From the NCBI GenBank assembly GCA_028277795.1, contig JANQFP010000017.1, forward strand, positions 1 through 54,788: DNA of 54,788 bases. Reading direction: 5' to 3'. A model generated the notes under the pieces. That model made no database searches. It saw only the letters and a program-made list of their open reading frames with translations, and was not told the DNA's origin. Source of the stretch: Rhodospirillales bacterium. Its GTDB lineage: Bacteria; Pseudomonadota; Alphaproteobacteria; Rhodospirillales; JANQFP01. Positions 22,655 through 49,406 of this stretch are shown one piece after another. Positions within the stretch are counted from its first letter, which is position 1, and the number at the start of each line of letters is the position of its first letter. Made by a program: the position numbers and the translations under genes.

Positions 22655-22660
22655 GGCCTT

Positions 22661-22668: not shown

Positions 22669-22733
22669 GTCCCGTGTATGGCCGGGGCCGGCCCGTATGT
22701 GGCGTGCCAATCCTATTGTACACCCGCTTTCTG

Positions 22734-26696: not shown

Positions 26697-26750
26697 CCGG
26701 ATACAACCCCTAGATAGTATCCGAGTGCGGATTCAATAGGAATTATGCTT

Positions 26751-26783
26751 ACGGTTACGGCGCTTATACCAAAGGATAACCGT
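26751..26783. repeat. 7-bp inverted repeat in the glgB-kinase spacer
   Basis: ACGGTTA (26751-26757) and TAACCGT (26777-26783) are perfect complements around a 19-nt loop. The spacer (26697-26815) lies after the leftward glgB-like stop and before the leftward kinase start. There is no T-tract, so it is a weak terminator candidate or an operator. Confidence 0.3.
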
Positions 26784-26815
26784 TGCGCCGCGCCACCATT
26801 CGGGTCGGCCGGCCG

Positions 26816-32209: not shown

Positions 32210-33472
32210 TTAGAAGAACCGGAACAGGCGGATCTGGACGAAATCGTCCTTGCGGAAGCCGGACAGCGGCACGTCTTCGACCGGCACGCCGAAGAACCCA
32301 CTGGCCTCCAGCTCGATCTTCCAGTCGTCGCCGATGCGCCGCTCGGCCTCAATCGCCAGGGAGGTGGCCTGGGTCTTCTTGTCCACCGCCACGCCGATCA
32401 GGAACGAGGTGTCGTCGACGTCGTTCATGGTCAGCCGCACGCCGCCGAAGACGTCGTTGTCGGCCGAGGTGACCGGGGCGGTGCTGTTGCGGCCGTCCCA
32501 CAGGTACTCGACCAGCAGACCGATGTCTGCGTCCGATTCGAAAACGCCGAAGAAGGTGTATTCGAAGCCCGCCACCGAGGCGAAGAACTGGTTGTCGCCG
32601 TTGTTCCACCGCGAGATGGCCTCTCCCTTCCACAGCCACGCCCCCTGGGTGAGCTGCACGTCGAGGCCGGTCTGGTCGATGATGTCGTAGGTGGGCACGA
32701 GCCGTGGCCGCAAGCTGGGCTCCACGCCGAGCGGGGTGCGCGGCTCCCGACCGGTGCCGTGGAAGTGGTAGATGCCCACGTCCCAGTCCTCGATGCTGTG
32801 GGACCAGCGCAGCGCCGCGTCCGGGTGCAGCTCGCGCAGATCGGACTCGTAGTCGGGGTGGTCGTCGTCGACGGGAATGGCACTGCGCAGCCGGCCGTCC
32901 CGGCCGGGGAAGGGCCGCTGGCGGAAGGCGGGCATGTAGAACACGCCGAAGGTGCCCCAGTCGGTGAAGTAGTTCAGGTTGATCAGGGGCTGGCCCAGCT
33001 TGTCCTCCTCGTCCGGGTCCTCCAGGGCATCGGTCTGGTTGATGATGTCCACCAGATGGCGGGATTCGGTGACGCCCCAGAAGACCTTGCCCAGGCCCAC
33101 CGTCAGGTCCCAGTCGCTGCCCAGGTGCTGCCAGTTGGCCTCGCGCAGGTCGCCGTGGGTGCGGTCACGGTCGGTGGCGTCCAGGCGGACGAAGGGGATC
33201 AGCGTCAGGCGGTCGTCGCCGTCGTTGAAGTCGTACCGGTACTCGGGCTGGAGGAGCAAAGCCGGTTGCACCCGGGCCGGCTTCTGGTCCAGGTGGGCGG
33301 AGGCATCGAAAAAGGCGCGGACCTCGGCGGCCACGTAGCCGGTGAACTCGTGCTCGCCGGTCAGCCAGCCGTCCTCCTGCTCGCTCTCCGCCGCGTCGTC
33401 CTGGGCGGCGGCGGGAATGGCCGACCCCGCCAAGGCGTAGGCCAGCAGGAGGGCGAGGCGCCGGCGGGCCAT
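32210..33472 (-). CDS. Outer-membrane beta-barrel protein of an RND/LolA-like export set
   Basis: The 420-aa precursor has a signal peptide ending AAAQDD and many alternating-residue strands (YRYDFNDGDDRLTLIPFVRL, WDVGIYHFHG). It finishes ...IRLFRFF, with the C-terminal Phe typical of BAM-assembled outer-membrane proteins. The start lies 1 bp after the stop of the LolA-like gene and the two share an operon with the RND exporter. Barrels of this kind are often found with MMPL/COG1033-type transporters and predicted lipoprotein-sorting proteins. It may provide the outer-membrane end of a lipid-export route. No specific porin family is claimed. Confidence 0.82.
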   Translation of the reverse strand: MARRRLALLLAYALAGSAIPAAAQDDAAESEQEDGWLTGEHEFTGYVAAEVRAFFDASAHLDQKPARVQPALLLQPEYRYDFNDGDDRLTLIPFVRLDATDRDRTHGDLREANWQHLGSDWDLTVGLGKVFWGVTESRHLVDIINQTDALEDPDEEDKLGQPLINLNYFTDWGTFGVFYMPAFRQRPFPGRDGRLRSAIPVDDDHPDYESDLRELHPDAALRWSHSIEDWDVGIYHFHGTGREPRTPLGVEPSLRPRLVPTYDIIDQTGLDVQLTQGAWLWKGEAISRWNNGDNQFFASVAGFEYTFFGVFESDADIGLLVEYLWDGRNSTAPVTSADNDVFGGVRLTMNDVDDTSFLIGVAVDKKTQATSLAIEAERRIGDDWKIELEASGFFGVPVEDVPLSGFRKDDFVQIRLFRFF

Positions 33473-33473
33473 G

Positions 33474-34268
33474 TCAGCGCAGCCTCTTCAACCGGTTGGG
33501 CTTGAAGTCGCTGTCGCTGAGGCCGGTCCGGAAACGGTACTCCGACCACACCATGTCCGTGCTCTTACCCGTCTGATGGTTGACCATTGCCATCTTTCCC
33601 GGCCGCCAGTAGCGGTCCAGGTACTGGGAGTAGTCATGGTAGGTCAGGGTCTTGAGGAAGGCGTTCTTGCGGTCGTAGTACTCGATCTTGTAGGTGCGGT
33701 AGGTCTTGTGCTCAAGCCACACCGTCTGGCGCTTGTAGCCTGACGCCTTGTCCTTGGGGAAACGGTCGAGCACGTAGCATTGCAGGCTCTCGTCGCCTGG
33801 GCACGCCTCGTCGCGCAGGAACTTGTAGTCGTACTTGGTCACCTCAGGCGTGGTCAGGTCCTCGTAGGAGAACTCGCTGCCGACGTAGGACCCCGACTTG
33901 TTGCTGGAGCTGATGCGCTTGACCCGCTTCAGCGCCGGCAGATAGAGCCACTGGTCGTCGTCGCCCTCTCGATGGGTATAGGTGAGCACCGCGGTGCCGT
34001 TCACGTCGCGCGGCTTGGAGAACACGTTGAGGCTCTTGTCGCCGTCGTTCTCCACCTCCAGGGTGCGCGCCTGGAAGGTGCGGACGCTCTCCTTGCCCTG
34101 CTTGTTGCGCAAAACCATGGTTCCGTCGGCGACGGAGTCGCCGAAACCCGAGTCGTAATCGTCGGCCTCAACGGCGATACGCTTCCCCTTTTCCTCCGGG
34201 GTCTCCGCGGCAGCCGGCGCGATCTGGAGCAACAGGGCGGCTAGAATGGCAGTGGCGATACGAATCAT
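33474..34268 (-). CDS. LolA-like periplasmic protein (outer membrane lipoprotein-sorting family)
   Basis: The 264-aa precursor has a clear signal peptide (MIRIATAILAALLLQIAPAAA). The mature part contains the hallmark DDQWLYLPALKRVKRIS followed by SGSYVGSEFSYEDL, which identifies the LolA-like family often annotated 'outer membrane lipoprotein-sorting protein' (PF17131 type). LolA-fold proteins carry acylated cargo in a half-barrel across the periplasm. The ATG overlaps the RND exporter stop by 4 bp and the gene ends 1 bp before the barrel gene, so the three are translationally coupled. Cargo is inferred to be the acylated product of the adjacent synthetase. Confidence 0.9.
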   Translation of the reverse strand: MIRIATAILAALLLQIAPAAAETPEEKGKRIAVEADDYDSGFGDSVADGTMVLRNKQGKESVRTFQARTLEVENDGDKSLNVFSKPRDVNGTAVLTYTHREGDDDQWLYLPALKRVKRISSSNKSGSYVGSEFSYEDLTTPEVTKYDYKFLRDEACPGDESLQCYVLDRFPKDKASGYKRQTVWLEHKTYRTYKIEYYDRKNAFLKTLTYHDYSQYLDRYWRPGKMAMVNHQTGKSTDMVWSEYRFRTGLSDSDFKPNRLKRLR

Positions 34269-36598
34269 GACATCTTCCTCCTGTCCAGCAGGATGAGCAG
34301 GGGTGGAAGGAACAGGAAATCGGCGATCAGGGCCACCGAGATGGTGATGGCGCTGAGCAGGCCCATGTCGCCGTTGACCGCGAACCCCGACGAGGCCAGC
34401 ACGCCGAAACCCGCGACCAGGGCCACCGTGGTCACCGTCAGCGCGATGCCCACGGAGCTGAAGGAGTAGCGGACCGCGTCAGCCGAATCCATGCCGTACT
34501 CCCGGCGGCCGCGCAGGTACTTGCTGAGCAGGTGCACGGTGTCGTCGACCACGATGCCCAGGGTCATGGCGATGACCACCGAGATGGCCAGGTTGACCTC
34601 CTGGAACAGGTAGCCCCAGATGCCGAAAGCGATGGCCGCCGGCATCAGGTTGGGCGCCAGGCTGACGCCGGCAATGAGCGCGTCACGCAGGACGAAGCCC
34701 AGAACCGCCGAGATCAGGACCAGGGCAAGCAGCGTGCCGCGGAGCATGGACCAGTTGTTGCGCTCGGAGATGCGCGACACCGCCATGGACATTCCCGTGG
34801 CCTTGGCCCACATGTCGGGCGCGTTCTCCTGGAGCCACGCCTCGCCCTTTGCGGCGATGTCCAGGAGCTCGGCCGAGGTCGTGTTGACCGGCGTCACCGT
34901 CACCCGCGAGGCCGACTTGCCCACGTCCATGGAGCTGTTGAGGTCGAGGCCGTAGGGCACCGACAGCTCGTAGAGCATCAGGTACTGGGCCGCCAGTTCG
35001 CTACTTTCGGGGATGGCGTAGAAGGCGGGATCGTCGCCGTTGACGTTCTGATTGAGGCGCTTGATGGTGTCGCTCATCACCGAGACGTGGGCCACCTTGT
35101 CCTGTTGTCGGTACCACTCGGCGAACTTGTCGAGCTTCTCCAGATACTCTGGCCGGGTGATGCCCTGCTCCTCGCCCGCCGGCACCGAGAACTCGATGGC
35201 GTGGATGCCCGTCAGGCGGTCCTGGGTGAAATCGGCGTCGACCCGGAACTGGTAGCGGTGGTCGAAGTATCGGATGAAATCATCGTCGAGGATGATGCGG
35301 GTGATGCCGAACCCGGCCGCGACCAGGACAAAACCCGTGGCGATCATCAACGGCACGCGTCGGCTGATCACGAAATCGGCGAGGCCATCCATGAACCGGC
35401 TCGTGTCGGCGGCCGTCCGTGCCCCGACGGGCAGCAGTGCCAGCACCGCCGGTGCCGAGATGACCGAGTAAAGCCATGCCAGGATCACCCCGATGGCGAC
35501 CAGGTTGCCGAGCTCGCGCAACGGCGGGGATTCGCTAAAGTTGAGGCTGAGGAATCCGATGGCCGTGGTGATGGACGTGATGGCAATGGGCTGCATATTG
35601 ACCCGCAGGGCCTCGACCAGCGCCGCCTGCTTGTCGAGCCCGTGGGCCCTCTGTTGCTGCATGGCGGCCAGGATGTGCACGCAGTGGGCCACCGACAGGG
35701 TCATGACGATCACCGGGGCCGCCGACGTGGAGGAATTGAGCACCAGCCCGTACCAGCCGGCCAGGCCCAGGGTGCTGAACACCGACAGGATGATGACCAG
35801 GAAGGTCACCAAGGTGCCGAGGATGGTCCGCATGGACACGGCGATGATCACGATGATCAGGGCCAGCATGGTGAGCACCAAGGTCTTGGAGTCCGCCTCC
35901 GAGGCCTCGGCGAAGGCCATGTCGATCATCACGCCGCCGGCAAGGTAGAAGTCGATCTCCGGGTGCCCGGCCCGGGCCTTGTCCACCATGTCGCGGACGT
36001 AGGTGACCACCTGCGGGATCTCGTCCAGGCTCTCGGCCGGGTTCAAGACCGTGATGACCACGGCGGTGACGTCGCCTTTTTCCGAGACGACCTTCTTGTA
36101 CAAGGCCTTGCGGGTCATGGCGATGTCGCGCACCGCGACCAGTTGCTCATCGGTCAGCGACGCCGCGTCGGTCACCAGATCGGAGATGACCAGATCCTCC
36201 CCCTCGGCCCGCGAGTACTGGAAGTTGGTCAGTGAATCGACGCGCCGCGAGAACGGCGTTTGCCAGCCCTGCTCGGTCAGCTCCTCGACTAGGCTCAGGG
36301 TCTCGCGGGTGAACACGTTGCCGTTCTTGGGCGCCATGACGATGAGGACACTGTTGTCCTTGGTGTAGGTCTCCTCCAGCGCCTCCAATGCCATGCGGTC
36401 CGGGTTGTCCTTGGCGAAGTACACCCGGCTGTCGGTTTCCACGATCAGCTTGCCGGTCGCCTCGTCCACGTGGAACCGCATGCCTGAAGCCGCCACGGCG
36501 GCGAGCAGCACGGACACGATCAGGATGACCCACCGCAGCCGGACGATGGTCTCGCCCAGTGGATAGGGTTGGGCATGGACCGCCGCATCGTCGCTCAT
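34265..36598 (-). CDS. RND/MMPL-family exporter (COG1033 type)
   Basis: The ATG at 36598, preceded by AGGGGGAAA, gives 777 aa beginning MSDDAAVHAQPY; a start at 36700 adds 34 residues. After one N-terminal helix (LRWVILIVSVLLAAVAASG) comes a large periplasmic domain (DSRVYFAKDNPDRMALEALE). Two blocks of about six helices follow, separated by a second periplasmic domain, with conserved segments ITSITTAIGFLSLNF and VIAMTLGIVVDDTVHLLSKY. This is the RND superfamily 'predicted exporter' layout related to lipid transporters HpnN and MmpL. It overlaps the LolA-like gene and lies 104 bp downstream of the FAAL-NRPS gene on the same strand, which suggests that it exports the synthetase product. Confidence 0.92.
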   Translation of the reverse strand: MSDDAAVHAQPYPLGETIVRLRWVILIVSVLLAAVAASGMRFHVDEATGKLIVETDSRVYFAKDNPDRMALEALEETYTKDNSVLIVMAPKNGNVFTRETLSLVEELTEQGWQTPFSRRVDSLTNFQYSRAEGEDLVISDLVTDAASLTDEQLVAVRDIAMTRKALYKKVVSEKGDVTAVVITVLNPAESLDEIPQVVTYVRDMVDKARAGHPEIDFYLAGGVMIDMAFAEASEADSKTLVLTMLALIIVIIAVSMRTILGTLVTFLVIILSVFSTLGLAGWYGLVLNSSTSAAPVIVMTLSVAHCVHILAAMQQQRAHGLDKQAALVEALRVNMQPIAITSITTAIGFLSLNFSESPPLRELGNLVAIGVILAWLYSVISAPAVLALLPVGARTAADTSRFMDGLADFVISRRVPLMIATGFVLVAAGFGITRIILDDDFIRYFDHRYQFRVDADFTQDRLTGIHAIEFSVPAGEEQGITRPEYLEKLDKFAEWYRQQDKVAHVSVMSDTIKRLNQNVNGDDPAFYAIPESSELAAQYLMLYELSVPYGLDLNSSMDVGKSASRVTVTPVNTTSAELLDIAAKGEAWLQENAPDMWAKATGMSMAVSRISERNNWSMLRGTLLALVLISAVLGFVLRDALIAGVSLAPNLMPAAIAFGIWGYLFQEVNLAISVVIAMTLGIVVDDTVHLLSKYLRGRREYGMDSADAVRYSFSSVGIALTVTTVALVAGFGVLASSGFAVNGDMGLLSAITISVALIADFLFLPPLLILLDRRKMS

Positions 36599-36702
36599 CA
36601 GCTTTCCCCCTGGCCGACCCGAATGGGTCCTGCCGCTCCCTCTGCGGGCCCCGGTTGCCGCATGCGCCGGCCTCGCGCCAGCGTTCGGCTGCCGCATCAA
36701 AT

Positions 36703-39700
36703 CTATCGCCGAAACCCCGGCGGCGACACCATTTTGTCGGCAACTGGTTCGGTTTCAATGGAATTTTTTGCGTCCGCCGATCGCGGCGGCGGAGCCTTGG
36801 CCCCGTCGGCACCGGTGATGCAGTCGTTGATCACGGCCGCCAGGTCGTTGACGTAGGGATCGCGGAACATGCGCCCGTGCCATCCCGGCACCCGCAGCGT
36901 TTCCATCCCGCCTTTGGCCCGGAACCGCCAGCGGAAGAAGAACTGGAAGCGGAACGGCGCATTGCCCTGGGTCATCAGCAGGGTGATGCGCCCCGGGTAG
37001 TCGCGGACCCGGTGGCGGCGCATGGCCCTGAGCTGCGCTTCAAGGCCCTGATCGTTGAAGACGGTACGAAGCCAGCGGCTGAACACCTCGCTGGTGCCGA
37101 ATCCGAACCGGGTGACCAGCGCCTTGATGATGCGGAACAGGATGAGGCTGCCGATGGACCAAGTGGGGTAGATGGTATCGAGGAGGATGAGGGACGCGAC
37201 CTCGCGTCCCTGCTCGCGGAGCCGGCGCGCCACATCCACCGCCACCACGCCGCCCAGCGAGAAGCCGGCGATCAGGTAGGGACCCTGGGGCTGGACGGCG
37301 ACGATCTCGTCCACGTAGCGCTGGGCCACGTCGGCGATCTCCAGCTTCAGCCGCCCCTCGCCATTGGCCCGCGGTGGCACCAAGCCGTAGAACGGGCGAT
37401 CGACGCCCATGCGTGGTGCCAGCGCAGCGAACCGCATGACGTCGCCATGTCCGGCAGCGACGCAGAAGAACGGCGTGCGGCCCTGGCCTTGCTGGATGGA
37501 CACCAGAAGCCCCTCGCGCGCCGACGCGGATGCCGAACGCAGGTCCTGGGCCAACGCCTCGATGGTTGGCGATTCGAAGATGGCGGTTGGCGGCACCTTG
37601 TAGCCGAGTTGTTTCTCCAACTGTCCCAAGATGCGGAGCGCGAGCAGGGAGTGGCCTCCGAGATCGAAGAAGTTGTCGCGGATGCCGATGGGCTTGATGT
37701 CGAGCACGCTCTCCCAGATCCGCGACAACGCGGTTTCCAGGTCGTCACGCGGCGCGGTGAACTGGCGGCCGGTGGCCGCCGCCGCCTCGTCGGGCGCCGG
37801 CAGGGCGTTGCGGTCGACCTTGCCACTGGGGGTCTGGGGCAGGGCGTCCACAACCATGAACGCCGCCGGAATCATGTATTCGGGCAGGACCCGGTCGAGG
37901 AAGGCGCGCAACTCGGCGGCATCGGGCGCGGCCCCGGTCCGGGGCACCACGTATCCGATCAGGCGGGGCTCGGTGGCCCCGTCCCGGCGCGCAGCCACGG
38001 CGGCGTCGCGTACCCCCGGCGCCTCCATGAGGCGGGCTTCGATCTCGCCCAGCTCGACGCGGTAACCACGCACCTTCACCTGGGCATCCAAGCGGCCCAG
38101 GAACTCGATGACGCCGTCGGGCCGGTAGCGGGCGAGGTCGCCGGTCTTGTAGAGCCGTCCGCCGCCGGCGGGGTCGGAGGGGTCGGTCACGAAGCGCTCG
38201 GCAGTCAGCTCGGGCCGGTTCAGGTAGCCGCGGGCCAGCCCCTCGCCGCCGATGTGCAGCTCCCCGGGAACGCCCACCGGCACGGGCTGCATGTTGGCGT
38301 CAAGCAGTTGGACGGTGGCGTGCGAAACCGGCCGGCCGATCGGCACCACCGTCTCGGTGCTGCCGCGGATGCAGCGCCAGTGGGTGGCGAAGATGGTGGC
38401 CTCGGTCGGGCCGTAGAAGTGCTGGAGCTCGGCGCCGCAGACGGCGAAGAACCGTTTCTGCAAGTCTCCCGACACGGCCTCGCCGCCGCACACCACATGG
38501 CGGAGGGCGCCGCAGCGGGCCAGGTCGGGGACCTCCACCATGTGCTGCAACAGCGACGGAACGCAGGACATGGCGGTGATCTCCCGGTCCGCCATCTCGC
38601 CGACCAGCGCCGCCGGATCCCGCAGGATGCCGGGCGGAGCGACGACCAGGCGCGCCCCCGCCAGCAACGGGGTGAAGATCTCCCACACGGCCGGGTCGAA
38701 GCTCAGCGGGATGGTCTGCAGGATGCGGTCGGCAGCCGTGATGCCGAGCACCTTCTGCTTCCACCGGAGGCGGTTGCAGGCGGCCTCATGGGGCGTCATC
38801 ACGCCCTTGGGCACGCCGGTCGAGCCCGATGTGTAGAGGACATAGGCCAGGTTTTCGGAAGAGACCGTCACCGCCGGGCTGTCGCTGGGCCGGCCCGCCA
38901 CCTGGGGCCAGTCGCTGTCGAGGCACAGGGTCACGGCGTTGGTGGACAGGCCGTCGCGCAGGCGGTCCAGGGTCAGGAGCACCGGAGCCGCGCAGTCGTC
39001 GATCATGAAGCGCACGCGGTCCGGCGGGTTGGCCGGATCGATGGTCACGAAGGCGCCGCCGGCCTTGAGGACCCCCAATAGGGCGATCACCATCTCCAAC
39101 GACCGTTCCATGATGACGGCCACCAGACCGTCCGCTCCGACGCCCAGGTCGACCAGATGATGGGCGAGCTGATTGGCGCGGGCGTCCAGGTCCCGGTATG
39201 TCAGCTCTTGGTCCATGAACGTCACGGCCACGGCTTCGGGCGTCCGCGCCGCCTGGTCCTCGATGAGCCGGTGCAGGCAGGCGCCGGCGAAGGTCTCGGG
39301 CCGCGGCACGTCGGCCGAGCGCGCGTTCCAGGCGGCGATGCGGTCCGATTCGGCCGGCGTCAGCATGGGGAGGCCCGCCACCGCGGCGTCGGGGTCCGCG
39401 ATGGCAGCGGCGAGCAGCACCTGGTAGTGGCGGGCCAGACGCTCGATGGTGTCGCGGTCGAACAGATCGCTGGCATAGCTGAGATAGGCGAAAAGGCGGC
39501 TCGGCGTCTCGAAGAACTCCAGGTTGAGGTCGAACTGCCCTTCGAGCTGAGGCAGCACGAAGGGGACGAACGCCACCCCGTCGCTGGCGATGCCCTGGCC
39601 CGGGCCGCCCTCGGCGCGGAAGCCGGCGTCGGCCTCGAAGTTCAGGCGGGTCAGGCCGAAGGCGATCTGGAACAACGGCGGTCGGCTGGGATCGCGCCGC

Positions 39701-42700
39701 GGATTGAGCTGTTCGACCAGCACCGAGAAGGGCAGCTCCTGGTGGTCGATGGCCTCGCGTACCGTGTGCCGCACCCGCTCGGTCAGGTCGCGGAAACTGA
39801 CCGTGTCGTCGAAGTCCGTGCGCAGCACGACCGGATTGACGAAATAGCCGACGGTGCGGTCGAACCCGCGGTCCCAGCGCCCGGCCATGATGGTGCCCAC
39901 GGGGATGTCGGTGCGCCCCAGGTAGCGGCTGAGCAGGACCAGGAACACCGCCTGCAGGACGATGAACGCGGTGGCCCCGGTCTCCGCCGCCAGCCGCCTC
40001 AGGCCGGTGGTATCGGCCGGCGACAGCGTGATGGGCACGGTGCCGCCGCTGAAGGTCTGGACGGGGGGGCGGGGCTTGGCCATGGGGAGGTCGGTCTCCG
40101 GCGGGCTGTCGGCCAGGCGCCGGCGCCAGTACTCCAGGTCGGCGGTGCCGTCGGCGCTGGCCAGTTCCCCTTCCTGCCGGCGCAGGAGATCGGCATAAGG
40201 AGCCGACAGCGGCGGCGGCAAGCCTTCGTGGTCGGTCTCGTTGGCGTAGAGGGCGAACAGGTCTTCAAGCACCACGTTGACCGACCAGCCGTCGCAGATC
40301 ATGTGGTGGCTGCACAGCATCAGCACGTGCCGGTCCTCACTCAGGCGGAACAGGACGCACCGGGTCAAGGGGTCGTCCAGCAGGCGGAACGGGCGACGCG
40401 CCGCCTCGTAGAGGGCCTCGACCACCTGGGTGTCCGATCGCCCGCCCAGGTCCACGTGCTCGAGCGGGATGACCGTCTTGCCGTTCAGCACCAACCGCGG
40501 CTCGCCGTGGCGCAGGGTCAGCCGCGCCGCGAGCAGAGGATGGCGTGCGCCGAGGGCGTCGAGGGCCCGTTGCAGGGCCTCGCCGACGACGACGCCATGG
40601 ACTTGCAGGGTCATGGTCAGGTTGTAGGCCGAGCTGTCGGCGGCCAACTGCTGCTGGAACCACAAGGCCGCCTGGCCGCGGGTCAGCGGCAACTCGGTCG
40701 CCGCGCCGCCGTTGATGGGCGCAGTGTCGGGCGCCGTGTCCGGGGCCTCCACCACGACCGGCACTCGGCCGTCGGGGAGACGCCGGCCCAGATCGTCGGC
40801 CAACGCCTCCAGGCTGCGGTCCTCGAGAAACGTTGTGACCGGCAGGGACAGCCCCAAACGGCTCTCGACGATGTGGGCGAGACGGGCGGCGGCCAGGGAG
40901 TCGAGCCCCAGGGTATGGACCGGGCGATGGATGTCGACTCGCCCAACAGGGACGTTGAGGGCGCCCGCCACCTGGGCCTGCATGTAGGTGAGCAGATCCG
41001 GGGCCTCGCCGTCGAACAACGCCGCCGCCACCTCCTCGGCGCCGGGATGACGGTCGACGGCGGTATGAGGGGCGTGGGTCGCCACGTCGCGCCAGACCTC
41101 CGGCAGGGTGTCGGTGACGAAGCTGTCGCGCACCGCGTGCCGCATGATCTTGCCGCTCGACGTCTTGGGATTGGTCCCCGGCTTGACCAGGATGATGGCG
41201 TCCAGGTGGATCTCAAGATCGGCCCACACGGCGACGCGGATGGCATCGACCACGGCGGCGAGGTCGTATTTCTTGTAGTGCCGCCCGACTTCGTGGACCA
41301 GGACGATGATCTCCTCGCCATCCACGCCCACCTCGAACGCGGCACCGCCGGCAGACACCAGGAGATCGTGGCAGCCTTCGGCCGCGAACTCGATGTCGTG
41401 CGGGTGGACGTTGCGGCCGTGGACGATGATCAGGTCCTTGATGCGGCCGGTGTAGAACAGCTCACCGCCGTCGATGAAACCCAGGTCCCCGGTGCGCAGG
41501 AACGGGCCGGCGCTGTTGGACTTCAGACGAGCGTCGAAGTCCTCGGCCGTCTGATCGGGACGCTCCCAGTAGCCGCGGGCCACGTTGCTGCCGTGCACCC
41601 AGATCTCGCCGATCCGCCGCTCGGGGCAGGGTTGACGGGTGCGGGGATCGACGATGGACACCTCCTGGTCGAGGGCGGAGCGTCCGATGCTGACCAGGAC
41701 ACGGGCCGCCTCGTCGGTATGGGCAACGGGGACCGCTTCGTGGCGGTCCAGCCCGGCGGCGTCGTAGGCGCGCACCACCGGCAGTTCCCATTTGCGCGCG
41801 CAGGACACCCAGAGCGTTGCTTCGGCCAGGCCATAGATGGGTAGGTGGGCATCGGCGCGGAAGCCGTATTCGGCGAACACCTCGGCGAATTTCTGGATGG
41901 TGCTGGCGCGGATGGGTTCGGCACCATTGAACGCCACCCGCCAGCTGCTGAGATCGAGGTCGGCGCGCTCCTCGGGCGTGGTCTTGTAGATGCACAGGTC
42001 GTAGGCGAAGTTGGGTCCGCCGCTGCTGTGCGGGCGGTACCGCGAGATGGCCTTGAGCCAGCGGATCGGCCGCTGGATGAACCGGATCGGCGGCATGACC
42101 ACGTTCTGGGTGCCCAGGAAAAGCGGCAGGATGGTGCAGCCGATCAGCCCCATGTCGTGGAACATGGGCAGCCACGTAAGCATGGCCGTCTCGTCGGTTT
42201 GCGCCGCCCCCACCGCCAGCATCCGCAGGTTGGACAAGAGGTTGGCGTGGCTGACCATCACCCCTTTGGGCACGCCCGTGGACCCGGAGGTGTACTGGAG
42301 GAACGCCAGGGTGTCCGGATCCAGCTCGAGCTGGCGCCATTGGCCGGCTCCCCCGTCATCGATGGTATCGGTGCACAGCCACGCGGCCCCGGCCAGGGCG
42401 GGAGCGGCCTCCGCCGGGCCACGGGCGATGGCCAGGATGTCCTCGGTGGTCAGGATGATGGCCGGCCGGCAGTCGGCGGCGATGGCCTCGATGCGCGGCA
42501 TGGCCCGGTTGCTGCGTGGCGGCGGCGCCGGAACGGCCACCGCGCCGGCATAGAGGCAGGCGAAGAAGGCGGCAATGAACTCGATCCCCGGCGGGTGCAG
42601 CAATAGCACCCGTTCGCCGGCGGCGCCCCGCTCCTGGAGGGCGGCGGCGATGGCGCGGATGCGGCGGTCGATGTCGGCGTAGGTGACGCGGCCGCTCTCG

Positions 42701-42837
42701 GTCTCGCCGTCCTCCAGGAAGGTGACGGCCAGACGGTCGGGATGCCGAGCCGCCCGCCACCGGAGAACCGAGACAACGTCGGAGAAATCCGGACCGGTAC
42801 GGGACGGATCGACGTGCACCTGCCAGCTTCCTTCCAT
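36703..42837 (-). CDS. Single-module hybrid synthetase: FAAL-ACP-C-A-PCP-TE
   Basis: The ATG at 42837 gives 2044 aa (MEGSWQVHVDPSR); an ATG 14 codons upstream is possible. Domains in order: fatty acyl-AMP ligase (about 10-590, LQYTSGSTGVPKGVMVSH); acyl carrier (Ser near 645 in LGLDSLAAARL); condensation domain (about 715-1150, SHHMICDGWSVNVV with an intact HHxxxDG); adenylation domain (about 1180-1680, YVLYTSGSTGVPKGVM, FYGPTEATI, VKVRGYRVELGE); peptidyl carrier (Ser near 1727, FDLGGHSLLAL); and thioesterase (Ser near 1860, GFSLGG). Logic: activate a free fatty acid, load it on ACP, acylate one PCP-bound amino acid, release by TE. By-eye specificity residues are D P W S V G F I F; I cannot match these to a substrate. 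Downstream exporter genes are on the same strand. Confidence 0.95.
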   Translation of the reverse strand: MEGSWQVHVDPSRTGPDFSDVVSVLRWRAARHPDRLAVTFLEDGETESGRVTYADIDRRIRAIAAALQERGAAGERVLLLHPPGIEFIAAFFACLYAGAVAVPAPPPRSNRAMPRIEAIAADCRPAIILTTEDILAIARGPAEAAPALAGAAWLCTDTIDDGGAGQWRQLELDPDTLAFLQYTSGSTGVPKGVMVSHANLLSNLRMLAVGAAQTDETAMLTWLPMFHDMGLIGCTILPLFLGTQNVVMPPIRFIQRPIRWLKAISRYRPHSSGGPNFAYDLCIYKTTPEERADLDLSSWRVAFNGAEPIRASTIQKFAEVFAEYGFRADAHLPIYGLAEATLWVSCARKWELPVVRAYDAAGLDRHEAVPVAHTDEAARVLVSIGRSALDQEVSIVDPRTRQPCPERRIGEIWVHGSNVARGYWERPDQTAEDFDARLKSNSAGPFLRTGDLGFIDGGELFYTGRIKDLIIVHGRNVHPHDIEFAAEGCHDLLVSAGGAAFEVGVDGEEIIVLVHEVGRHYKKYDLAAVVDAIRVAVWADLEIHLDAIILVKPGTNPKTSSGKIMRHAVRDSFVTDTLPEVWRDVATHAPHTAVDRHPGAEEVAAALFDGEAPDLLTYMQAQVAGALNVPVGRVDIHRPVHTLGLDSLAAARLAHIVESRLGLSLPVTTFLEDRSLEALADDLGRRLPDGRVPVVVEAPDTAPDTAPINGGAATELPLTRGQAALWFQQQLAADSSAYNLTMTLQVHGVVVGEALQRALDALGARHPLLAARLTLRHGEPRLVLNGKTVIPLEHVDLGGRSDTQVVEALYEAARRPFRLLDDPLTRCVLFRLSEDRHVLMLCSHHMICDGWSVNVVLEDLFALYANETDHEGLPPPLSAPYADLLRRQEGELASADGTADLEYWRRRLADSPPETDLPMAKPRPPVQTFSGGTVPITLSPADTTGLRRLAAETGATAFIVLQAVFLVLLSRYLGRTDIPVGTIMAGRWDRGFDRTVGYFVNPVVLRTDFDDTVSFRDLTERVRHTVREAIDHQELPFSVLVEQLNPRRDPSRPPLFQIAFGLTRLNFEADAGFRAEGGPGQGIASDGVAFVPFVLPQLEGQFDLNLEFFETPSRLFAYLSYASDLFDRDTIERLARHYQVLLAAAIADPDAAVAGLPMLTPAESDRIAAWNARSADVPRPETFAGACLHRLIEDQAARTPEAVAVTFMDQELTYRDLDARANQLAHHLVDLGVGADGLVAVIMERSLEMVIALLGVLKAGGAFVTIDPANPPDRVRFMIDDCAAPVLLTLDRLRDGLSTNAVTLCLDSDWPQVAGRPSDSPAVTVSSENLAYVLYTSGSTGVPKGVMTPHEAACNRLRWKQKVLGITAADRILQTIPLSFDPAVWEIFTPLLAGARLVVAPPGILRDPAALVGEMADREITAMSCVPSLLQHMVEVPDLARCGALRHVVCGGEAVSGDLQKRFFAVCGAELQHFYGPTEATIFATHWRCIRGSTETVVPIGRPVSHATVQLLDANMQPVPVGVPGELHIGGEGLARGYLNRPELTAERFVTDPSDPAGGGRLYKTGDLARYRPDGVIEFLGRLDAQVKVRGYRVELGEIEARLMEAPGVRDAAVAARRDGATEPRLIGYVVPRTGAAPDAAELRAFLDRVLPEYMIPAAFMVVDALPQTPSGKVDRNALPAPDEAAAATGRQFTAPRDDLETALSRIWESVLDIKPIGIRDNFFDLGGHSLLALRILGQLEKQLGYKVPPTAIFESPTIEALAQDLRSASASAREGLLVSIQQGQGRTPFFCVAAGHGDVMRFAALAPRMGVDRPFYGLVPPRANGEGRLKLEIADVAQRYVDEIVAVQPQGPYLIAGFSLGGVVAVDVARRLREQGREVASLILLDTIYPTWSIGSLILFRIIKALVTRFGFGTSEVFSRWLRTVFNDQGLEAQLRAMRRHRVRDYPGRITLLMTQGNAPFRFQFFFRWRFRAKGGMETLRVPGWHGRMFRDPYVNDLAAVINDCITGADGAKAPPPRSADAKNSIETEPVADKMVSPPGFRR

Positions 42838-42952
42838 ATCACACCATGGCTGCTGCTGCCGCGCGACCGCGCCCCTCATCGGCAGTCTGCCTGTACATGG
42901 TCAGGGGGCGCGCTCGGTTGCCTCGCACCATGGTGTCGTGGAAGATGGATCG
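42838..42952. promoter_or_regulatory. Divergent spacer between the synthetase and PPTase genes
   Basis: These 115 bp separate the leftward synthetase ATG from the rightward PPTase start and must hold promoters for both arms of the cluster. No clear -35/-10 pair or operator could be picked out by eye. Confidence 0.4.
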
Positions 42953-43780
42953 ATGCTATGCCACTCGTCACAGTGGTACAAGACTGCCTCGCCGACGGTG
43001 CCGTCCCGCCGGCTCCCGGCTGGACGGGACGTCCATGTCTGGTGTTGCGCCCTGCGCCGGATCGGCCCCCCGATGGTCGTCTTGGCCTCGGTGCTGTCCG
43101 AGGAAGAGCGGCGGCGGGCCGAGGCCTACCGGTTCGCCGCCGACCGCCGGCGGTTTACGGTCGGACGGGCGCTCCTGCGTTGGCTGGTGGCGTGCTACAC
43201 CGGCCGGCCGGCGCGTGCGCTCAGGCTCGTCGCCGGTCCCTACGGCAAGCCGATGCTGGCCGACGGCGGCGGCCACGCGCTCCGCTTCAGCCTGTCGGCG
43301 ACCCGGGGCTTGGCGGTGGTCGCCCTGGCCGCGGGCCGCGACGTCGGCGTGGACGTGGAGGGACTGCGTCCGCTGCCCGATGCCCTGACCCTGGCCCGCA
43401 CCGCGTTCACGTCCCGCGAGGCGGCCGCCCTCGACCGCCTGCCGGACTCCGACCGGGCAACCGCCTTCCTGCGCGCCTGGACCCGCAAGGAGGCCGTGGT
43501 CAAGGCCATCGGTGCCGGTCTGTCCTTCGGGCTCGACCGGGTCGAGGTCACGATGACTCCGGCGCCGCGGCTGCGGGCCATCGAAGGCCGGTCCCGGGAC
43601 GCCGCCGGATGGTCGCTGGTCGATCTGGGCCTCCCCCGGGGGACCCTGGGCGCGTTGGCCGTCGCCGGGCCGACGCCGGTGGTGACGGTTCGGACCACCG
43701 ATATCGACACCCTCGCCCGGCACCTGGCCCGGGCTCCGGCGGCCACGCCGCGATTGACGGTTAATCCTGATCTGCCATAG
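42953..43780 (+). CDS. Sfp-type 4'-phosphopantetheinyl transferase
   Basis: The ATG at 42953 gives 275 aa; upstream in-frame starts would overlap the divergent synthetase gene. Diagnostic motifs are GVDVEGL (Mg-binding Asp/Glu) and AWTRKEAVVKAIGAGLSFGL, matching the F/Y/G-VDxE and WxxKEAxxK signatures of the Sfp/EntD superfamily. LSEEERRRAEAYRF and FTVGRALLR complete the family pattern. It attaches the CoA phosphopantetheine arm to carrier-protein serines. The adjacent two-carrier synthetase is the obvious client. 43 bp separate it from the flavo-oxidase gene on the same strand. Confidence 0.92.
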   Translation: MLCHSSQWYKTASPTVPSRRLPAGRDVHVWCCALRRIGPPMVVLASVLSEEERRRAEAYRFAADRRRFTVGRALLRWLVACYTGRPARALRLVAGPYGKPMLADGGGHALRFSLSATRGLAVVALAAGRDVGVDVEGLRPLPDALTLARTAFTSREAAALDRLPDSDRATAFLRAWTRKEAVVKAIGAGLSFGLDRVEVTMTPAPRLRAIEGRSRDAAGWSLVDLGLPRGTLGALAVAGPTPVVTVRTTDIDTLARHLARAPAATPRLTVNPDLP

Positions 43781-43823
43781 GGTTATCCGGCACCTTCGCC
43801 TGCGCGAACAAGGGGGACCTCCC

Positions 43824-45404
43824 ATGAACGTCGACGAATTCCTGACCGACGTCCGCAAGGACCTGGCCGCCGAGGACGTCATGAACGACGCCGACTCGCT
43901 GGCCCGCTATGGCCAGAACCTGAGCGGCTACGAACGGCGGATTCCCCTGGTCGTGCGCCCGCGCAGCACCGAGCAGGTCGCCAAGGTGGTCACGGCCGCC
44001 AACCGCCACCTGGTTCCCCTCTACGCCTTCAGCCAGGGCAAGAACTGGGGACTGGGCTCCAAGCTGCCGGTGGTCGACGACTGTGCCCTGGTGGACCTGA
44101 GCGCCATGAACCGCATCCTCGACGTCAATACGACCTACGGCTATGCCATCGTCGAGCCGGGGGTGACCCAGGGCCAGTTGGCTGCCCATCTCAGCGAGAA
44201 CAAGATCCCGTTCTTCATGGACGTGACCGGCTCCGGCGCCTCGACCAGCATCATCGGCAACATGATGGAGCGCGGCGTCGCCTACAACTCGCTCCGTGCC
44301 GAGAAGCTGCTGTCCCTGCAGGCGGTGCTGGGCAACGGCGAGATCATCCGCACCGGCTTCGGCCATTTTCCCCAGTCCAAGGTGACGGCACTGTGCCGCT
44401 ACGGCACCGGGCCGGACCTGCTGGGCCTGTTCCCGCAGTCCAACTACGGCATCGTCACCGAGGCGACGGTGGAGCTGATGCCCGTGCCCGAGCACCAGAT
44501 GGTCTTCCTGGTCAACATCAAGGACGAGAGCCAGCTCGGACCCATGGTCGATGCCATGCGGCAATTGACCCAGCGCGGCGCCCTGGAAAGCGTTGTGCAC
44601 ATCGGCAACCGGCGGCGCAGCGAGGTCACCATGACACCGCTGATGTACCACTATCTGCAGAGCCAGGGCCGGCAGGTGACCCGCGACGAGGCGGAGAGGA
44701 TGGTCTCGGCCCAGCTCAAGGGCCCGTGGAGCGCCATCGGCGCCATCATGGGCACCAAGAGCCACGTCTCGGCCTCCAAGCGCGAGATCAAGGCGGCCCT
44801 CGGCCGCTTCGGCCGGCTCGACTTCATGACGGAGGGCCTGCTGCAGTTCGCCAAGACGGCGACCAAGCTGGCCGGCGTCAAGAGCATCAACGACTTCCTG
44901 TGCGCGTCGGAGCCCCTGCTCGCCCTGCCCCGCGGGGTGCCCACCGACGCCGCCCTGCACAGCGCCTACTGGCCGGCCGCCGACTCCAGTCCCGACCTGA
45001 GCCAGCCCGACGTCAGCGCCGGCGGCATGCTGTTCGCGGCCCCCATCGTCCCCCAGGACAGCGAGTCCGTGCGCCTGGCCGTGGAAGCCACCGACCGGGT
45101 CGGAGACGAGCACGGCTTCAAGCCGGCCGTCACCCTCAACATGATGCACGACAAGTCCCTGGAAGGGGTGGTCAGCATCGATTTCGTCCGCGCCGACGCC
45201 GAGCAATGCCGCCGCGCCAAGGAATGCATGCGCGGCCTCAACCAAGCCTACATGGATCTGGGTTTCATGCCCTACCGCATCGACATCGAGAACATGCCGA
45301 TGATCATGGACGCCGACGATCCGTTCTGGAAGACGGCAAAGGCGTTGAAGACGGTCTTGGACCCCAACAACATCATCTCGCCGCGCCGGTTCAATCTGGT
45401 GTAA
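43824..45404 (+). CDS. FAD-dependent oxidase, VAO/PCMH (4-cresol dehydrogenase-like) family
   Basis: The 526-aa protein starts after AGGGGGA. The PP-loop FAD-binding half (about 37-225) includes PLVVRPRSTEQVAKVVTAAN, LYAFSQGKNWGLGS and GSGASTSIIGNMMERGVAY. The C-terminal cap ends KTVLDPNNIISPRRF, as in vanillyl-alcohol oxidase and the p-cresol methylhydroxylase flavoprotein. Those enzymes oxidise para-substituted phenols. If the synthetase uses an aromatic building block, this could be a tailoring enzyme; that is speculation from its position in the PPTase operon. No adjacent cytochrome c subunit is present, so an oxidase or other electron acceptor is more likely than a PCMH complex. The gene ends 11 bp before a convergent gene. 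Confidence 0.88.
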   Translation: MNVDEFLTDVRKDLAAEDVMNDADSLARYGQNLSGYERRIPLVVRPRSTEQVAKVVTAANRHLVPLYAFSQGKNWGLGSKLPVVDDCALVDLSAMNRILDVNTTYGYAIVEPGVTQGQLAAHLSENKIPFFMDVTGSGASTSIIGNMMERGVAYNSLRAEKLLSLQAVLGNGEIIRTGFGHFPQSKVTALCRYGTGPDLLGLFPQSNYGIVTEATVELMPVPEHQMVFLVNIKDESQLGPMVDAMRQLTQRGALESVVHIGNRRRSEVTMTPLMYHYLQSQGRQVTRDEAERMVSAQLKGPWSAIGAIMGTKSHVSASKREIKAALGRFGRLDFMTEGLLQFAKTATKLAGVKSINDFLCASEPLLALPRGVPTDAALHSAYWPAADSSPDLSQPDVSAGGMLFAAPIVPQDSESVRLAVEATDRVGDEHGFKPAVTLNMMHDKSLEGVVSIDFVRADAEQCRRAKECMRGLNQAYMDLGFMPYRIDIENMPMIMDADDPFWKTAKALKTVLDPNNIISPRRFNLV

Positions 45405-45415
45405 CGCCCAGCGGC

Positions 45416-47665
45416 TCAGGCGGACGACTCGCTGTCGGCCTGCCAGCGCGCCAGCGCCGGTTTGGCGTAAACGTAGGCCTTGTCGGCGATCTTGGGGGCG
45501 TTGGCGTAGCCCATGATGGGGTACTCGGACACCGGCGGCTCCAGATACAGGTCGGCGATGCCGTCGCGCACGATCTTGCGCTGGGCCAAACCGCCGATGG
45601 CCGTCGAGCGGGCGATGACGTCCATGATGTTGGGGACGTTCATGCGCTCCGTGAAGGGGTTGAGCCGGCTCATCAGGACCTTCCAGCCCGACAATCCGCC
45701 GTCATAGGGGGTGTTGGACAGTAGGTCGTCCTTGGGATTGACGTCGATCGCGATCAAGGTGCCGCCCTCGTTGTAGCGCTCCATGACGTCGGCGGGGACG
45801 TTGTTGAGCAGAGCCCCGTCGACCAGCAGGTCGCCGTCCTCGTGCACCTTGGGCGGGAAAAGGGCCGGCGGCGTATTGCTGGCCAGCACGGCTTCCGAGA
45901 GCAGCCCCTTGTCGTGGATCATGACGGTGGCCCGGCTCAGGTTGCACGACACGCTGAAATAGCGCCGCCACAGGTCCTCCACCGTGGCGTCACCGAAGAT
46001 GGCCCGCACCCCGCGGGTGAACTTGCGGCCGCGGAATACGGACACCATCGGGATGGTCAGGTTCTCTCCGGCCAGGCACAGGTCGAGGGTCCGCTTGATG
46101 ATGGTGTCGCCGTCCCACTGCATGGCGCATTGGGCCCCGATCAGGGCGCCCATGCTGGTGCCGCCTACCAGGTCGATGGGGATGCCGGCCTCGGTGAGGG
46201 CGCGGATGATGCCGATGTGGGCGAAGCCGCGGGCACCGCCGCCGCCGAAGACCACCGCCACGGCCCGTCCGGTGAGGAACCGGGCCAGCCGCCCGAAATC
46301 CTCGGTCCGCCGCAGCCGCACGTGATGGTGGTTGCCGATGCGGCGCGCCGACAGCCAGGCCAGCGAGCCCGACGGCACTTCGGTGTCGGTGTCGTGCAGC
46401 AGCACCAGGCTGGTGCGCCGCCCGGTGAGCTTGTGCTCCTCGGTAAGCTGCTGCTCGATCTCGCCCTTCTCCGGCGGTCCCTTGGCGTCGGCCATGAACA
46501 GGATGTGGTCGCCCTGGCGCAGGCAGCGCCGCGACCAGTTGGACACCCGCTCGTCGGCCACGTAGATCACGTACCGGTAATTGAACTCCTGCTCGTTGAG
46601 CCAGTCGAGCAGCGTCGCGTTGCGCGGGTCGTCGAAGGCGGCCTGGGCGAATCCCTCCCGGCCCATGATCTGGTCGCACTGCTGGCTGGTCAGCAGCAGG
46701 GTCGGGCCGACTTCGGACAGGGCCTGGGCCAGCCATTCGCCGGCCTCGGCAACCGGCACGCCCTGGCGCACCGGGATGAGGGCGAAACTGTTGGCGGACT
46801 TGGCCCCGCGGCTCGTGGCCCGTTTTCCGCCGCCGCCGAAATGGCGAACGATGATGCCGACGAACAGCCGGTTGATGACGTGGGGATACAGGCCGAGAAG
46901 CCGTTCCAGCTCGGCCCCGTTCATCTTGGCGACCGTGCTGTCACGCACGGCGATCACGTCGGCGGCGCGCGGTGCGCCGGTGATGACCCCCATTTCGCCG
47001 ACGCTCTCGCCCGGCCCGACCTCGTTCAGGAACAGGCTGCCGCTGCCCGGCTGGTTGAGCCAAATGCGCAGCCGGCCGCTGACCACGACGAACAGGGAGT
47101 CCGCCGGCTCGCCCTGGCGGCAAAGGACCGAGCCGCTTTGCAGCGTCAGCAGCTCCATGCCCGATTCCAGTTCGTGCAGCACGTCCTGGTCCACGTCCTT
47201 GAAGATCTCGCTGGCCCGCAGCACGATGCCGAATCGGATGCGCTGCATGCGCTCGGTCATCGCCTCGGCCACCGGCCCGATCTGGTCGGGGTGCTGGTCC
47301 AGGAGGTTGGCAAAGGACTCGGCGCTGAGGGAGAGCAGGCGGGTAGGTTCGGTGGCGCGCACGGTTGCCGAACGCTTGCTGTTGCCGAGGAGCGAGATCT
47401 CGCCGACGCTGTGGCCGGGGCCGGGCTCGGCGAGCACGCGCTCGGTGTCCATCCACTCCGACGTCACCGACAGCCGGCCGGACCAGATCAGGTACAGGCT
47501 GTTGCCCGGGTCTCCCTGGGAGAACAGCACCTGGTCGGCGTCCATGTCCACCCAGGTGAACTCGGGCACCATCAGGCTCAGGACCTCGGGCGCGACCGCG
47601 CTGAACAACTGGGTCGAGGCCAGGAACGTCTGAATGTCGGCGGCTTGTGGATCGGATGCGGTCAT
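45416..47665 (-). CDS. Patatin/NTE-family phospholipase with two cyclic-nucleotide-binding-like domains
   Basis: The 749-aa protein has two Crp-like cNMP domains (about 15-135 and 150-270, with LFSQGDPGNSLYLIWSGRL and VLCRQGEPADSLFVVVSGRL). A linker region with IYVADERVSNWSRRCLR follows, then a patatin domain (about 465-640). The patatin motifs are intact: VVFGGGGARGFAHIG (oxyanion loop), nucleophile Ser in GGTSMGAL near residue 502, and Asp in VDGALLNN near 617. This matches bacterial relatives of neuropathy target esterase, serine phospholipases at the membrane. It is convergent with the flavo-oxidase gene. A role in phospholipid remodelling or fatty-acid supply for the FAAL is possible but inferred. 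Confidence 0.93.
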   Translation of the reverse strand: MTASDPQAADIQTFLASTQLFSAVAPEVLSLMVPEFTWVDMDADQVLFSQGDPGNSLYLIWSGRLSVTSEWMDTERVLAEPGPGHSVGEISLLGNSKRSATVRATEPTRLLSLSAESFANLLDQHPDQIGPVAEAMTERMQRIRFGIVLRASEIFKDVDQDVLHELESGMELLTLQSGSVLCRQGEPADSLFVVVSGRLRIWLNQPGSGSLFLNEVGPGESVGEMGVITGAPRAADVIAVRDSTVAKMNGAELERLLGLYPHVINRLFVGIIVRHFGGGGKRATSRGAKSANSFALIPVRQGVPVAEAGEWLAQALSEVGPTLLLTSQQCDQIMGREGFAQAAFDDPRNATLLDWLNEQEFNYRYVIYVADERVSNWSRRCLRQGDHILFMADAKGPPEKGEIEQQLTEEHKLTGRRTSLVLLHDTDTEVPSGSLAWLSARRIGNHHHVRLRRTEDFGRLARFLTGRAVAVVFGGGGARGFAHIGIIRALTEAGIPIDLVGGTSMGALIGAQCAMQWDGDTIIKRTLDLCLAGENLTIPMVSVFRGRKFTRGVRAIFGDATVEDLWRRYFSVSCNLSRATVMIHDKGLLSEAVLASNTPPALFPPKVHEDGDLLVDGALLNNVPADVMERYNEGGTLIAIDVNPKDDLLSNTPYDGGLSGWKVLMSRLNPFTERMNVPNIMDVIARSTAIGGLAQRKIVRDGIADLYLEPPVSEYPIMGYANAPKIADKAYVYAKPALARWQADSESSA

Positions 47666-47856
47666 CGACGTACTGCGGCCCCCCTCAACGTCGATACGCC
47701 GGCGTCACGGGACCGGCCGGCTCGCTCTTGCGCCGGGTTCTCGGAACGCGTTGCCGGACCTGCCGGCGGTCACCGGCGAGGGTCCGCGCCAGCACCATAG
47801 CCGCCAAATACGGCGCGGACGAGTCTTTTCAGCGGTGCTCCGGGACCCTGGAATTC

Positions 47857-49296: not shown

Positions 49297-49338
49297 GCAA
49301 GCCTCCTCTGTCCGCCGCCCCCGGTGCCGCCGTGCCTG

Positions 49339-49368
49339 TGGACATGGGGCGCGGCCCGATAATTAATA
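49339..49368. promoter_or_regulatory. Motif TGGACA-N14-ATAATTAATA in the manC/phosphatase spacer
   Basis: TGGACA (49339-49344) is followed after 14 bp by ATAATTAATA. The same two elements occur 15 bp apart at 51270-51300 before apaG. In a GC-rich spacer the shared AT-rich block suggests a promoter or binding site. The spacing does not fit a standard sigma-70 -10. Confidence 0.35.
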
Positions 49369-49406
49369 AGGCGGAGGCGCCGCACATCAAGGACCCATAC
49401 CGTCGG

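What the first reader, a model, noticed from the sequence alone, without database searches (positions are those of the whole stretch)
32210..45404. Candidate lipid system: FAAL-NRPS-TE synthetase coupled to an RND/LolA-like/beta-barrel export route
One locus holds a complete small lipopeptide synthetase (FAAL-ACP-C-A-PCP-TE), a Sfp-type PPTase, a VAO-type flavo-oxidase, and a translationally coupled RND exporter, LolA-like carrier and outer-membrane barrel. Domain order and gene spacing are seen directly. The idea that an N-acyl amino acid (or its oxidised form) is made, pulled from the inner membrane by RND, ferried by the LolA-like protein and placed in the outer membrane is inference. LolA-like plus MMPL pairs are known with aryl polyene lipids, but pairing them with a one-module FAAL-NRPS is, to my knowledge, not an established pathway.
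Basis: partly seen in the sequence, partly recalled or inferred. Interest (0 to 1): 0.82.

Follow-up and report, generated by a model that had tools for sequence, protein, structure and literature searches.

The report
Lipopeptide synthetase beside portable lipid exporter
This alphaproteobacterium carries a small enzyme assembly line that probably joins a fatty acid to one amino acid, and beside it a three-protein cassette that probably carries greasy molecules to the outer membrane; the two parts usually live apart, but a comparable pairing is already known in Acinetobacter, so it is a useful variant rather than a new kind of system.

Summary
The genes are real: a FAAL-ACP-C-A-PCP-TE synthetase, a PPTase, a 4-cresol-dehydrogenase/VAO-type flavoprotein, and a tightly coupled RND / LolA-like / beta-barrel trio. 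They form two modules with separate histories. (2) The trio is a free-standing cassette, complete in 52 of 57 sampled proteobacterial loci, nearly always without a synthetase. Yet the trio has landed beside assembly lines at least four independent times, and the Acinetobacter baumannii Ac-505 operon (A1S_0112-0119) has the same kinds of parts in the same order, with RND and LolA-like parts fused. So 'not an established pathway' is wrong in kind. Export of the product here is plausible (about 50%) but unproven. Partly supported; a new variant of a known kind.

The parts
32210..33472 (-). Outer-membrane beta-barrel (DUF1302-related, 420 aa, C-terminal Phe)
   Evidence: No Pfam hit itself; 2 of 19 homologues hit DUF1302; AlphaFold model pLDDT 79.8/pTM 0.77; Occ/OprD/AlgE-type fold Z about 23
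33474..34268 (-). LolA-like periplasmic carrier (PF17131)
   Evidence: E 2.6e-61; PDB 3BK5 1.8e-84; start overlaps RND stop
34265..36598 (-). RND/MMPL (HAE3-like) inner-membrane transporter, likely ATG start at 36598 (ORF opens at TTG 36700)
   Evidence: MMPL E 8.3e-35; HAE3 TIGR00921 below its cut-off; 63-68% identity in G099/G098/G087
36703..42879 (-). One-module synthetase FAAL-ACP-C-A-PCP-TE, 2058 aa
   Evidence: motifs
41095..42780 (-). FAAL domain of the synthetase (approximate)
   Evidence: NF004509 residues 34-590, PDB 3KXW residues 34-595
39340..40698 (-). Condensation domain (approximate)
   Evidence: PF00668 residues 728-1180
37801..39279 (-). Adenylation domain, code DPWSVGFIFK (approximate)
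   Evidence: TIGR01733 / AMP-binding; code conserved in orthologues
36790..37728 (-). PCP and thioesterase domains (approximate)
   Evidence: PF00550, PF00975
42953..43780 (+). Sfp/HetI-type 4'-phosphopantetheinyl transferase (start uncertain)
43824..45404 (+). VAO / 4-cresol-dehydrogenase-type flavo-oxidase
   Evidence: all close relatives found lie beside the synthetase
45416..47665 (-). NTE-type patatin esterase (two cNMP-binding domains, NTE P-loop, patatin); near the synthetase also in G210, G211, G1026
47857..49296 (-). ManC-like sugar nucleotidyltransferase; a homologue (53%) also lies near the synthetase in G099
   Evidence: function assigned by reading the sequence, not scanned
49332..50192 (+). 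Calcineurin-like phosphoesterase, next to NTE and oxidase in G210 and G1026

Best explanation
Two modules are juxtaposed. Module 1 (36703-45404, probably with 45416-50192) makes one small lipid. The FAAL domain activates a fatty acid as acyl-AMP and loads the ACP, the C domain joins it to one alpha-amino acid chosen by the A domain (code DPWSVGFIFK, residue unassigned), and the TE releases an N-acyl amino acid. The PPTase activates the carrier domains, and the VAO-type flavoprotein probably oxidises the product; its conserved Tyr-Arg pair would fit a phenolic (tyrosine-like) group. The NTE-patatin may free fatty acids for the FAAL (speculative). Module 2 (32210-36598) is a portable export cassette for lipids or hydrophobic molecules: the RND pump lifts the molecule from the inner membrane, the LolA-like protein carries it across the periplasm, and the Occ/OprD-like barrel passes it into or through the outer membrane. 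In this genome module 2 sits directly downstream of the synthetase and most likely exports its product, as proposed for the analogous Acinetobacter operon. Shown: genes, domains, motifs, gene order, conservation. Inferred: product, oxidation step, transport direction and the coupling itself (about 50%); that the two modules are historically separate I hold at about 90%.
For: Domains and motifs intact. Oxidase beside the synthetase in G000, G099, G098, G210 and G1026; searches of 385 class and 398 phylum genomes with the oxidase found only one further close relative, in G1026, and it lies beside the synthetase. A-domain code DPW(S/T)(V/I)G(F/C)I(F/Y)K kept in six genomes. Trio contiguous and free-standing in most of 57 loci, complete in 52. 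Trio, or its LolA-barrel part, sits with other lipid or assembly-line pathways: PKS-NRPS in G608, PKS, C protein and sulfotransferase in G497, PKS in Sulfitobacter, sterol genes in G298-G300, NRPS in A. baumannii; the RND tree needs at least 4 separate linkages. A similar RND/LolA/DUF1302 system, AmeABCD, affects monoterpene tolerance and dye efflux (PMC6394551). Same strand, 104-base gap, no terminator. All four genomes of the order with a synthetase of 50% identity or more also carry the closest trios; in G099 the two lie about 35 kb apart in 4.0 Mb.
Against: The trio is not next to this synthetase in any other genome examined; G210, G211 and G1026 have the synthetase without a trio-type LolA. 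In G087 the synthetase is followed directly by an AcrAB-type pump instead. The trio occurs almost always without a synthetase. Assembly-line genes within about 10 kb of trios are not significantly commoner than at 40 control sites. The four shared genomes are among the nearer relatives, so co-occurrence may be descent. A promoter in or just before the 104-base gap cannot be excluded (one promoter-like site at 36758-36731(-)). No product is known.
Confidence: 0.55

Rival explanations
1. The juxtaposition is accidental. The trio handles an unrelated hydrophobic substrate (as it must where it is free-standing), and the synthetase product leaves by another route or stays in the inner membrane.
For: Trio free-standing in nearly all of 57 loci; synthetase relatives exist without a neighbouring trio and three genomes lack it; G087 has an AcrAB-type pump downstream of the synthetase.
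Against: Co-directional, 104-base gap, no terminator; recurrent independent placement of the trio beside assembly lines; like arrangement in the A. baumannii operon.
Confidence: 0.35
2. The synthetase product serves the XrtA/PEP-CTERM exopolysaccharide system (as acyl decoration, signal or surfactant of the matrix), and the exporter is interchangeable or absent. It would be an NRPS-based counterpart of the N-acyl amino acid synthases already linked to exosortase loci.
For: In G210 and G1026 the synthetase, NTE, phosphoesterase and oxidase lie inside XrtA loci near FemAB, chain-length and XrtA genes; in G099 and G098 next to an EpsB-type XrtA glycosyltransferase. [quoted passage not shown]).
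Against: In the window's genome the XrtA locus is on another contig without the synthetase; near the window's set only a ManC-like gene and, 34 kb off, XrtA-like amidotransferases below their model cut-off are seen. This rival concerns the product's use and does not exclude export by the trio.
Confidence: 0.3
3. The trio imports a hydrophobic compound rather than exporting one.
For: In Thalassolituus oleivorans an RND-LolA fusion and a porin are induced on a long-chain alkane and were discussed under alkane transport (PMC6304351).
Against: AmeABCD deletion raised net dye influx, pointing to efflux (PMC6394551); the neighbours here are biosynthetic.
Confidence: 0.1

Closest known systems
Acinetobacter baumannii A1S_0112-A1S_0119 operon (acinetin 505; PMC5376624)
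   Same: FAAL, ACP, C-A-PCP-TE, then RND, LolA-like and barrel, and a PPTase, in one co-directional operon; homologous part by part (FAAL 37%, A 34%, LolA 27% E 2e-27, barrel 29% E 6e-8). Product detected in culture supernatant.
   Different: FAAL and ACP are separate genes; RND and LolA-like are fused in one 1216-aa protein with a START-like N-terminus; an acyl-CoA dehydrogenase stands in place of the VAO oxidase; extra epimerase/hydrolase gene; glycine code DILQLGVVWK; its RND lies in a distant branch.
AmeABCD of Castellaniella defragrans (HAE3 RND, DUF1329/LolA, COG4447, DUF1302; PMC6394551)
   Same: Same three-compartment plan: HAE3-like RND, LolA-superfamily periplasmic protein, DUF1302-type outer-membrane protein.
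   Different: No AmeC-like gene here; no terpene genes; LolA-like protein is the short PF17131 type; sequences not compared directly.
Pyoverdine starter synthetase PvdL and related FAAL-NRPS proteins (NF004282/PRK05691)
   Same: FAAL-ACP-C-A-PCP order.
   Different: Here one module ending in a TE; score far below that model's cut-off.
N-acyl amino acid synthases (TIGR03694) beside PEP-CTERM/exosortase loci
   Same: Likely kind of product and, for the synthetase's relatives, the same genomic setting.
   Different: Different enzyme class; this genome has two such genes elsewhere (C251, C101).
Aryl polyene / xanthomonadin clusters with MMPL and LolA-like genes (from memory)
   Same: MMPL plus LolA-like export pair.
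   Different: No ketosynthase in the window.

Membership tests
Ac-505-type operon (A1S_0112-0119) | FAAL, ACP and C-A-PCP-TE synthetase | tested here: met
   fused into one protein here
Ac-505-type operon (A1S_0112-0119) | RND, LolA-like and barrel directly downstream of the TE | tested here: met
   unfused here
Ac-505-type operon (A1S_0112-0119) | Acyl-CoA dehydrogenase gene | tested here: not met
   The flavoprotein is VAO-type; no acyl-CoA dehydrogenase among the genes next to the synthetase
Ac-505-type operon (A1S_0112-0119) | Glycine-type A domain code | tested here: not met
   DPWSVGFIFK against DILQLGVVWK
Ac-505-type operon (A1S_0112-0119) | Single transcript | not testable with these tools
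   Only spacing and absence of a terminator known
AmeABCD-type HAE3 export cassette | RND of the HAE3 family | tested here: inconclusive
   TIGR00921 best NCBIfam model, 150 bits against cut-off 352
AmeABCD-type HAE3 export cassette | LolA-superfamily/DUF1329 periplasmic protein | tested here: met
   DUF1329 33.6 bits, cut-off 23.1; PF17131 206.9 bits
AmeABCD-type HAE3 export cassette | DUF1302 outer-membrane protein | tested here: inconclusive
   No hit for the window barrel; 2 of 19 homologues, best E 5e-5; barrel fold predicted
AmeABCD-type HAE3 export cassette | AmeC-like (COG4447) gene in the cassette | tested here: not met
   The three genes abut with no room for a fourth
VAO / 4-cresol dehydrogenase flavoproteins | FAD-binding fold and overall similarity | tested here: met
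   PDB 1WVE E 6.5e-52
VAO / 4-cresol dehydrogenase flavoproteins | Tyr-Arg phenolate-binding pair near the C-terminus (role from memory) | tested here: met
   PYR(I/M/V)DI aligns with YRVNTR of 1WVE and is conserved in the orthologues that hold the region
VAO / 4-cresol dehydrogenase flavoproteins | Oxidation of a para-substituted phenol | not testable with these tools
   needs an enzyme assay
Aryl polyene cluster | Ketosynthase genes | tested here: not met
   No KS match in the window by tblastn

The most novel reading that the evidence does not exclude
A conserved, uncharacterised pathway (FAAL-NRPS-TE and VAO oxidase, with a PPTase or with an NTE-patatin and phosphoesterase) that belongs to XrtA/PEP-CTERM exopolysaccharide loci makes an oxidised N-acyl amino acid for the cell surface. 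It would be an NRPS counterpart of the exosortase-linked N-acyl amino acid synthases. In this lineage it has left the exopolysaccharide locus and acquired a general-purpose RND/LolA-like/barrel cassette as dedicated exporter.
Probability: 0.3. Interest if true: 0.65.

Novelty: new variant of a known kind. Interest (0 to 1): 0.45.

Why it matters
How Gram-negative bacteria move small non-ribosomal lipids to the outer membrane is poorly understood. A three-gene cassette that recurs beside unrelated lipid and assembly-line pathways (NRPS, PKS, sterol) is a testable candidate for a general lipid-export route. It also reinterprets A1S_0116/A1S_0117 of the A. baumannii biofilm and motility operon as an RND-LolA fusion plus a barrel of the same kind. 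The synthetase-oxidase set gives a concrete candidate metabolite for XrtA exopolysaccharide loci.

Tried and rejected
Conserved coupling of synthetase and trio: rejected as a rule. Enrichment of assembly lines near trios: apart from the window, 3 of 57 trio loci (L059 and L148 by tblastn, L151 by inspection) against 1 of 40 control regions, not significant; direct abutment to the RND looks more unusual but was not tested with a control. Co-occurrence of trio and close synthetase in four genomes: glycogen phosphorylase identities (51-54% in G087, G098, G099; 56-57% in G210, G211; 47-48% in G033, G034, G039) show these genomes are among the nearer relatives, so descent may explain it. The oxidase-synthetase link rests partly on looking beside synthetases already found; the class and phylum searches with the oxidase are the independent part and gave one more case. 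Aryl polyene reading: no KS in the window. Amino acid prediction: the code is unlike those I know, left open. Single-sequence barrel model failed (pLDDT 29.6); the alignment-based model was used. The genome-collection scan with the RND found only two loci. A phylum search with the synthetase failed on the machine. Foldseek alone gave porin-like barrels with TM about 0.5; VIA-align gave the clearer Occ/OprD/AlgE result.
Full report
What is there. The window is a whole contig (G000:C172) of a 4.4-Mb alphaproteobacterial genome that is the only one of its family in the collection; named records with related RND genes are a Magnetospira MAG and an alphaproteobacterial MAG. The synthetase at 36703-42879 has the order FAAL-ACP-C-A-PCP-TE with intact C, carrier and TE motifs. 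Divergent from it lie a HetI/Sfp-type PPTase and a VAO/4-cresol-dehydrogenase-type flavoprotein. Downstream on the same strand come an MMPL/RND transporter, a PF17131 LolA-like protein and a barrel. The last three are tightly coupled; the RND starts 104 bases after the synthetase stop with no terminator-like site between.

The barrel. It has no Pfam hit but is well conserved (19 sequences). An alignment-based model (pLDDT 79.8, pTM 0.77) matches Occ/OprD and AlgE structures at Z about 23 with 3.0-4.1 A rmsd over about 300 residues. Two of 19 homologues hit DUF1302 weakly, and the gene in the same position in a Prevotella cassette is annotated DUF1302.

What the trio is. A search of 317 genomes of the order found 26 with a barrel match, about 22 of them strong. 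A LolA profile search of 398 proteobacterial genomes found many more. In 57 loci fetched, 52 had RND, LolA-like and barrel together, usually with ordinary neighbours and, in several genomes of the order, a neighbouring AefR-type TetR regulator. The trio is therefore a free-standing cassette. In a minority it sits with lipid or assembly-line genes: a KS-ACP-C-A-PCP-TE protein just upstream in G608; a PKS, a condensation protein and a sulfotransferase directly upstream in G497; a type I PKS directly upstream on Sulfitobacter plasmids; an NRPS end convergent with it in G161; and sterol genes next to the LolA-barrel pair in G298-G300 (the RND is about 11 kb away in G298 and was not seen in the stretches of the other two). 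On an RND tree the assembly-line linkages need at least four separate changes. Assembly lines near trios were nevertheless not significantly more common than in 40 control regions, so recurrence is shown but a general association is not.

The precedent. The A. baumannii operon A1S_0112-0119, read here from a chromosome filed as a plasmid (L103), encodes FAAL, acyl-CoA dehydrogenase, ACP, C-A-PCP-TE, a 1216-aa protein, a 423-aa protein, an epimerase/hydrolase and a PPTase. The 1216-aa protein contains both MMPL and LolA_like domains, and the 423-aa protein is a distant homologue of the window barrel. The published account (PMC5376624) calls these an RND transporter and a possible porin, reports one transcript and a lipopeptide-like product in supernatant, acinetin 505, and proposes RND export. 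I found no paper in the library that names the LolA-like part. Thus a one-module FAAL-NRPS with an RND/LolA/barrel route is already known in kind. The window differs in its oxidase type, A-domain code, unfused parts and a distant RND lineage.

What the synthetase travels with. Homologues with 50% identity or more in the order occur in G099, G098 and (partial contig) G087. In G099 the oxidase and PPTase lie beside it in the same divergent arrangement; in G098 the oxidase does, with a PPTase about 2 kb beyond the TE; in both an XrtA-type EpsB glycosyltransferase is convergent downstream. In G087 an HlyD-type protein and an AcrB-type pump follow the synthetase directly. In G210 and G1026 the synthetase, NTE-patatin, phosphoesterase and oxidase are contiguous inside XrtA/PEP-CTERM exopolysaccharide loci. 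The window has the NTE-patatin and phosphoesterase too, with a ManC-like gene between; its own XrtA locus is on contig C150 without them. Close relatives of the oxidase are rare and were seen only beside the synthetase. The A-domain code is conserved across these genomes but not in G211.

Coupling. Trio and this synthetase are adjacent only in the window's genome. G210, G211 and G1026 lack a trio-type LolA. G099 has both about 35 kb apart; a distance that short would arise by chance about 2% of the time (my estimate from genome length). The genomes sharing both are among the nearer relatives. The position directly after the synthetase is filled by the trio here, by an AcrAB-type pump in G087 and by no pump elsewhere. 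I read this as an exchangeable exporter position, with even odds that the trio exports the product here.

Mechanism. Fatty acid to acyl-AMP to acyl-ACP (FAAL), condensation with one amino acid, release by the TE, oxidation by the VAO-type enzyme, then extraction by the RND, carriage by the LolA-like protein and passage into or through the outer membrane via the barrel. Enzyme classes and gene order are shown; product, oxidation and transport are inferred from the families. AmeABCD supports efflux of hydrophobic compounds by a similar set; the T. oleivorans pair was discussed under alkane transport.

Verdict. Observation confirmed; interpretation partly supported; a new variant of a known kind, of moderate interest. 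The stronger lead is the conserved synthetase-oxidase set in exosortase loci.

Noticed in passing
   Followed up: yes
L164-L165 (G1026), L096-L097 (G210): FAAL-NRPS-TE, NTE, phosphoesterase and VAO oxidase embedded in XrtA/PEP-CTERM exopolysaccharide loci next to FemAB.
   Followed up: partly
L103:11055-14705 and 14702-15973: The A. baumannii A1S_0116-type protein is an RND with a START-like N-terminus and a LolA-like C-terminus, overlapping a DUF1302-related barrel gene.
   Followed up: yes
L056-L058 (G298-G300): LolA-like and barrel genes beside a squalene epoxidase-cyclase fusion, an ERG4/ERG24 reductase and a Rieske oxygenase: possible sterol export.
   Followed up: partly
L222 (Leisingera plasmid): LolA-like and MMPL genes inside a biosynthetic cluster with adenylate-forming enzyme, hydroxybenzoate monooxygenase and AHL synthase.
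   Followed up: no
window 1188-3065 and 10451-12478: Two asparagine-synthase-like genes whose best model is the XrtA/PEP-CTERM amidotransferase, below its cut-off, on a different contig from the genome's XrtA locus.
   Followed up: partly
L104 (Pseudoalteromonas 23.9-kb plasmid): Trio genes on a small plasmid next to gamma-mobile-trio recombinase genes, with the barrel on the opposite strand: a hint of mobility.
   Followed up: no
window 18689-32139: Large PAS-type sensor kinases beside glycogen branching enzyme-like and glycogen phosphorylase genes.
   Followed up: no
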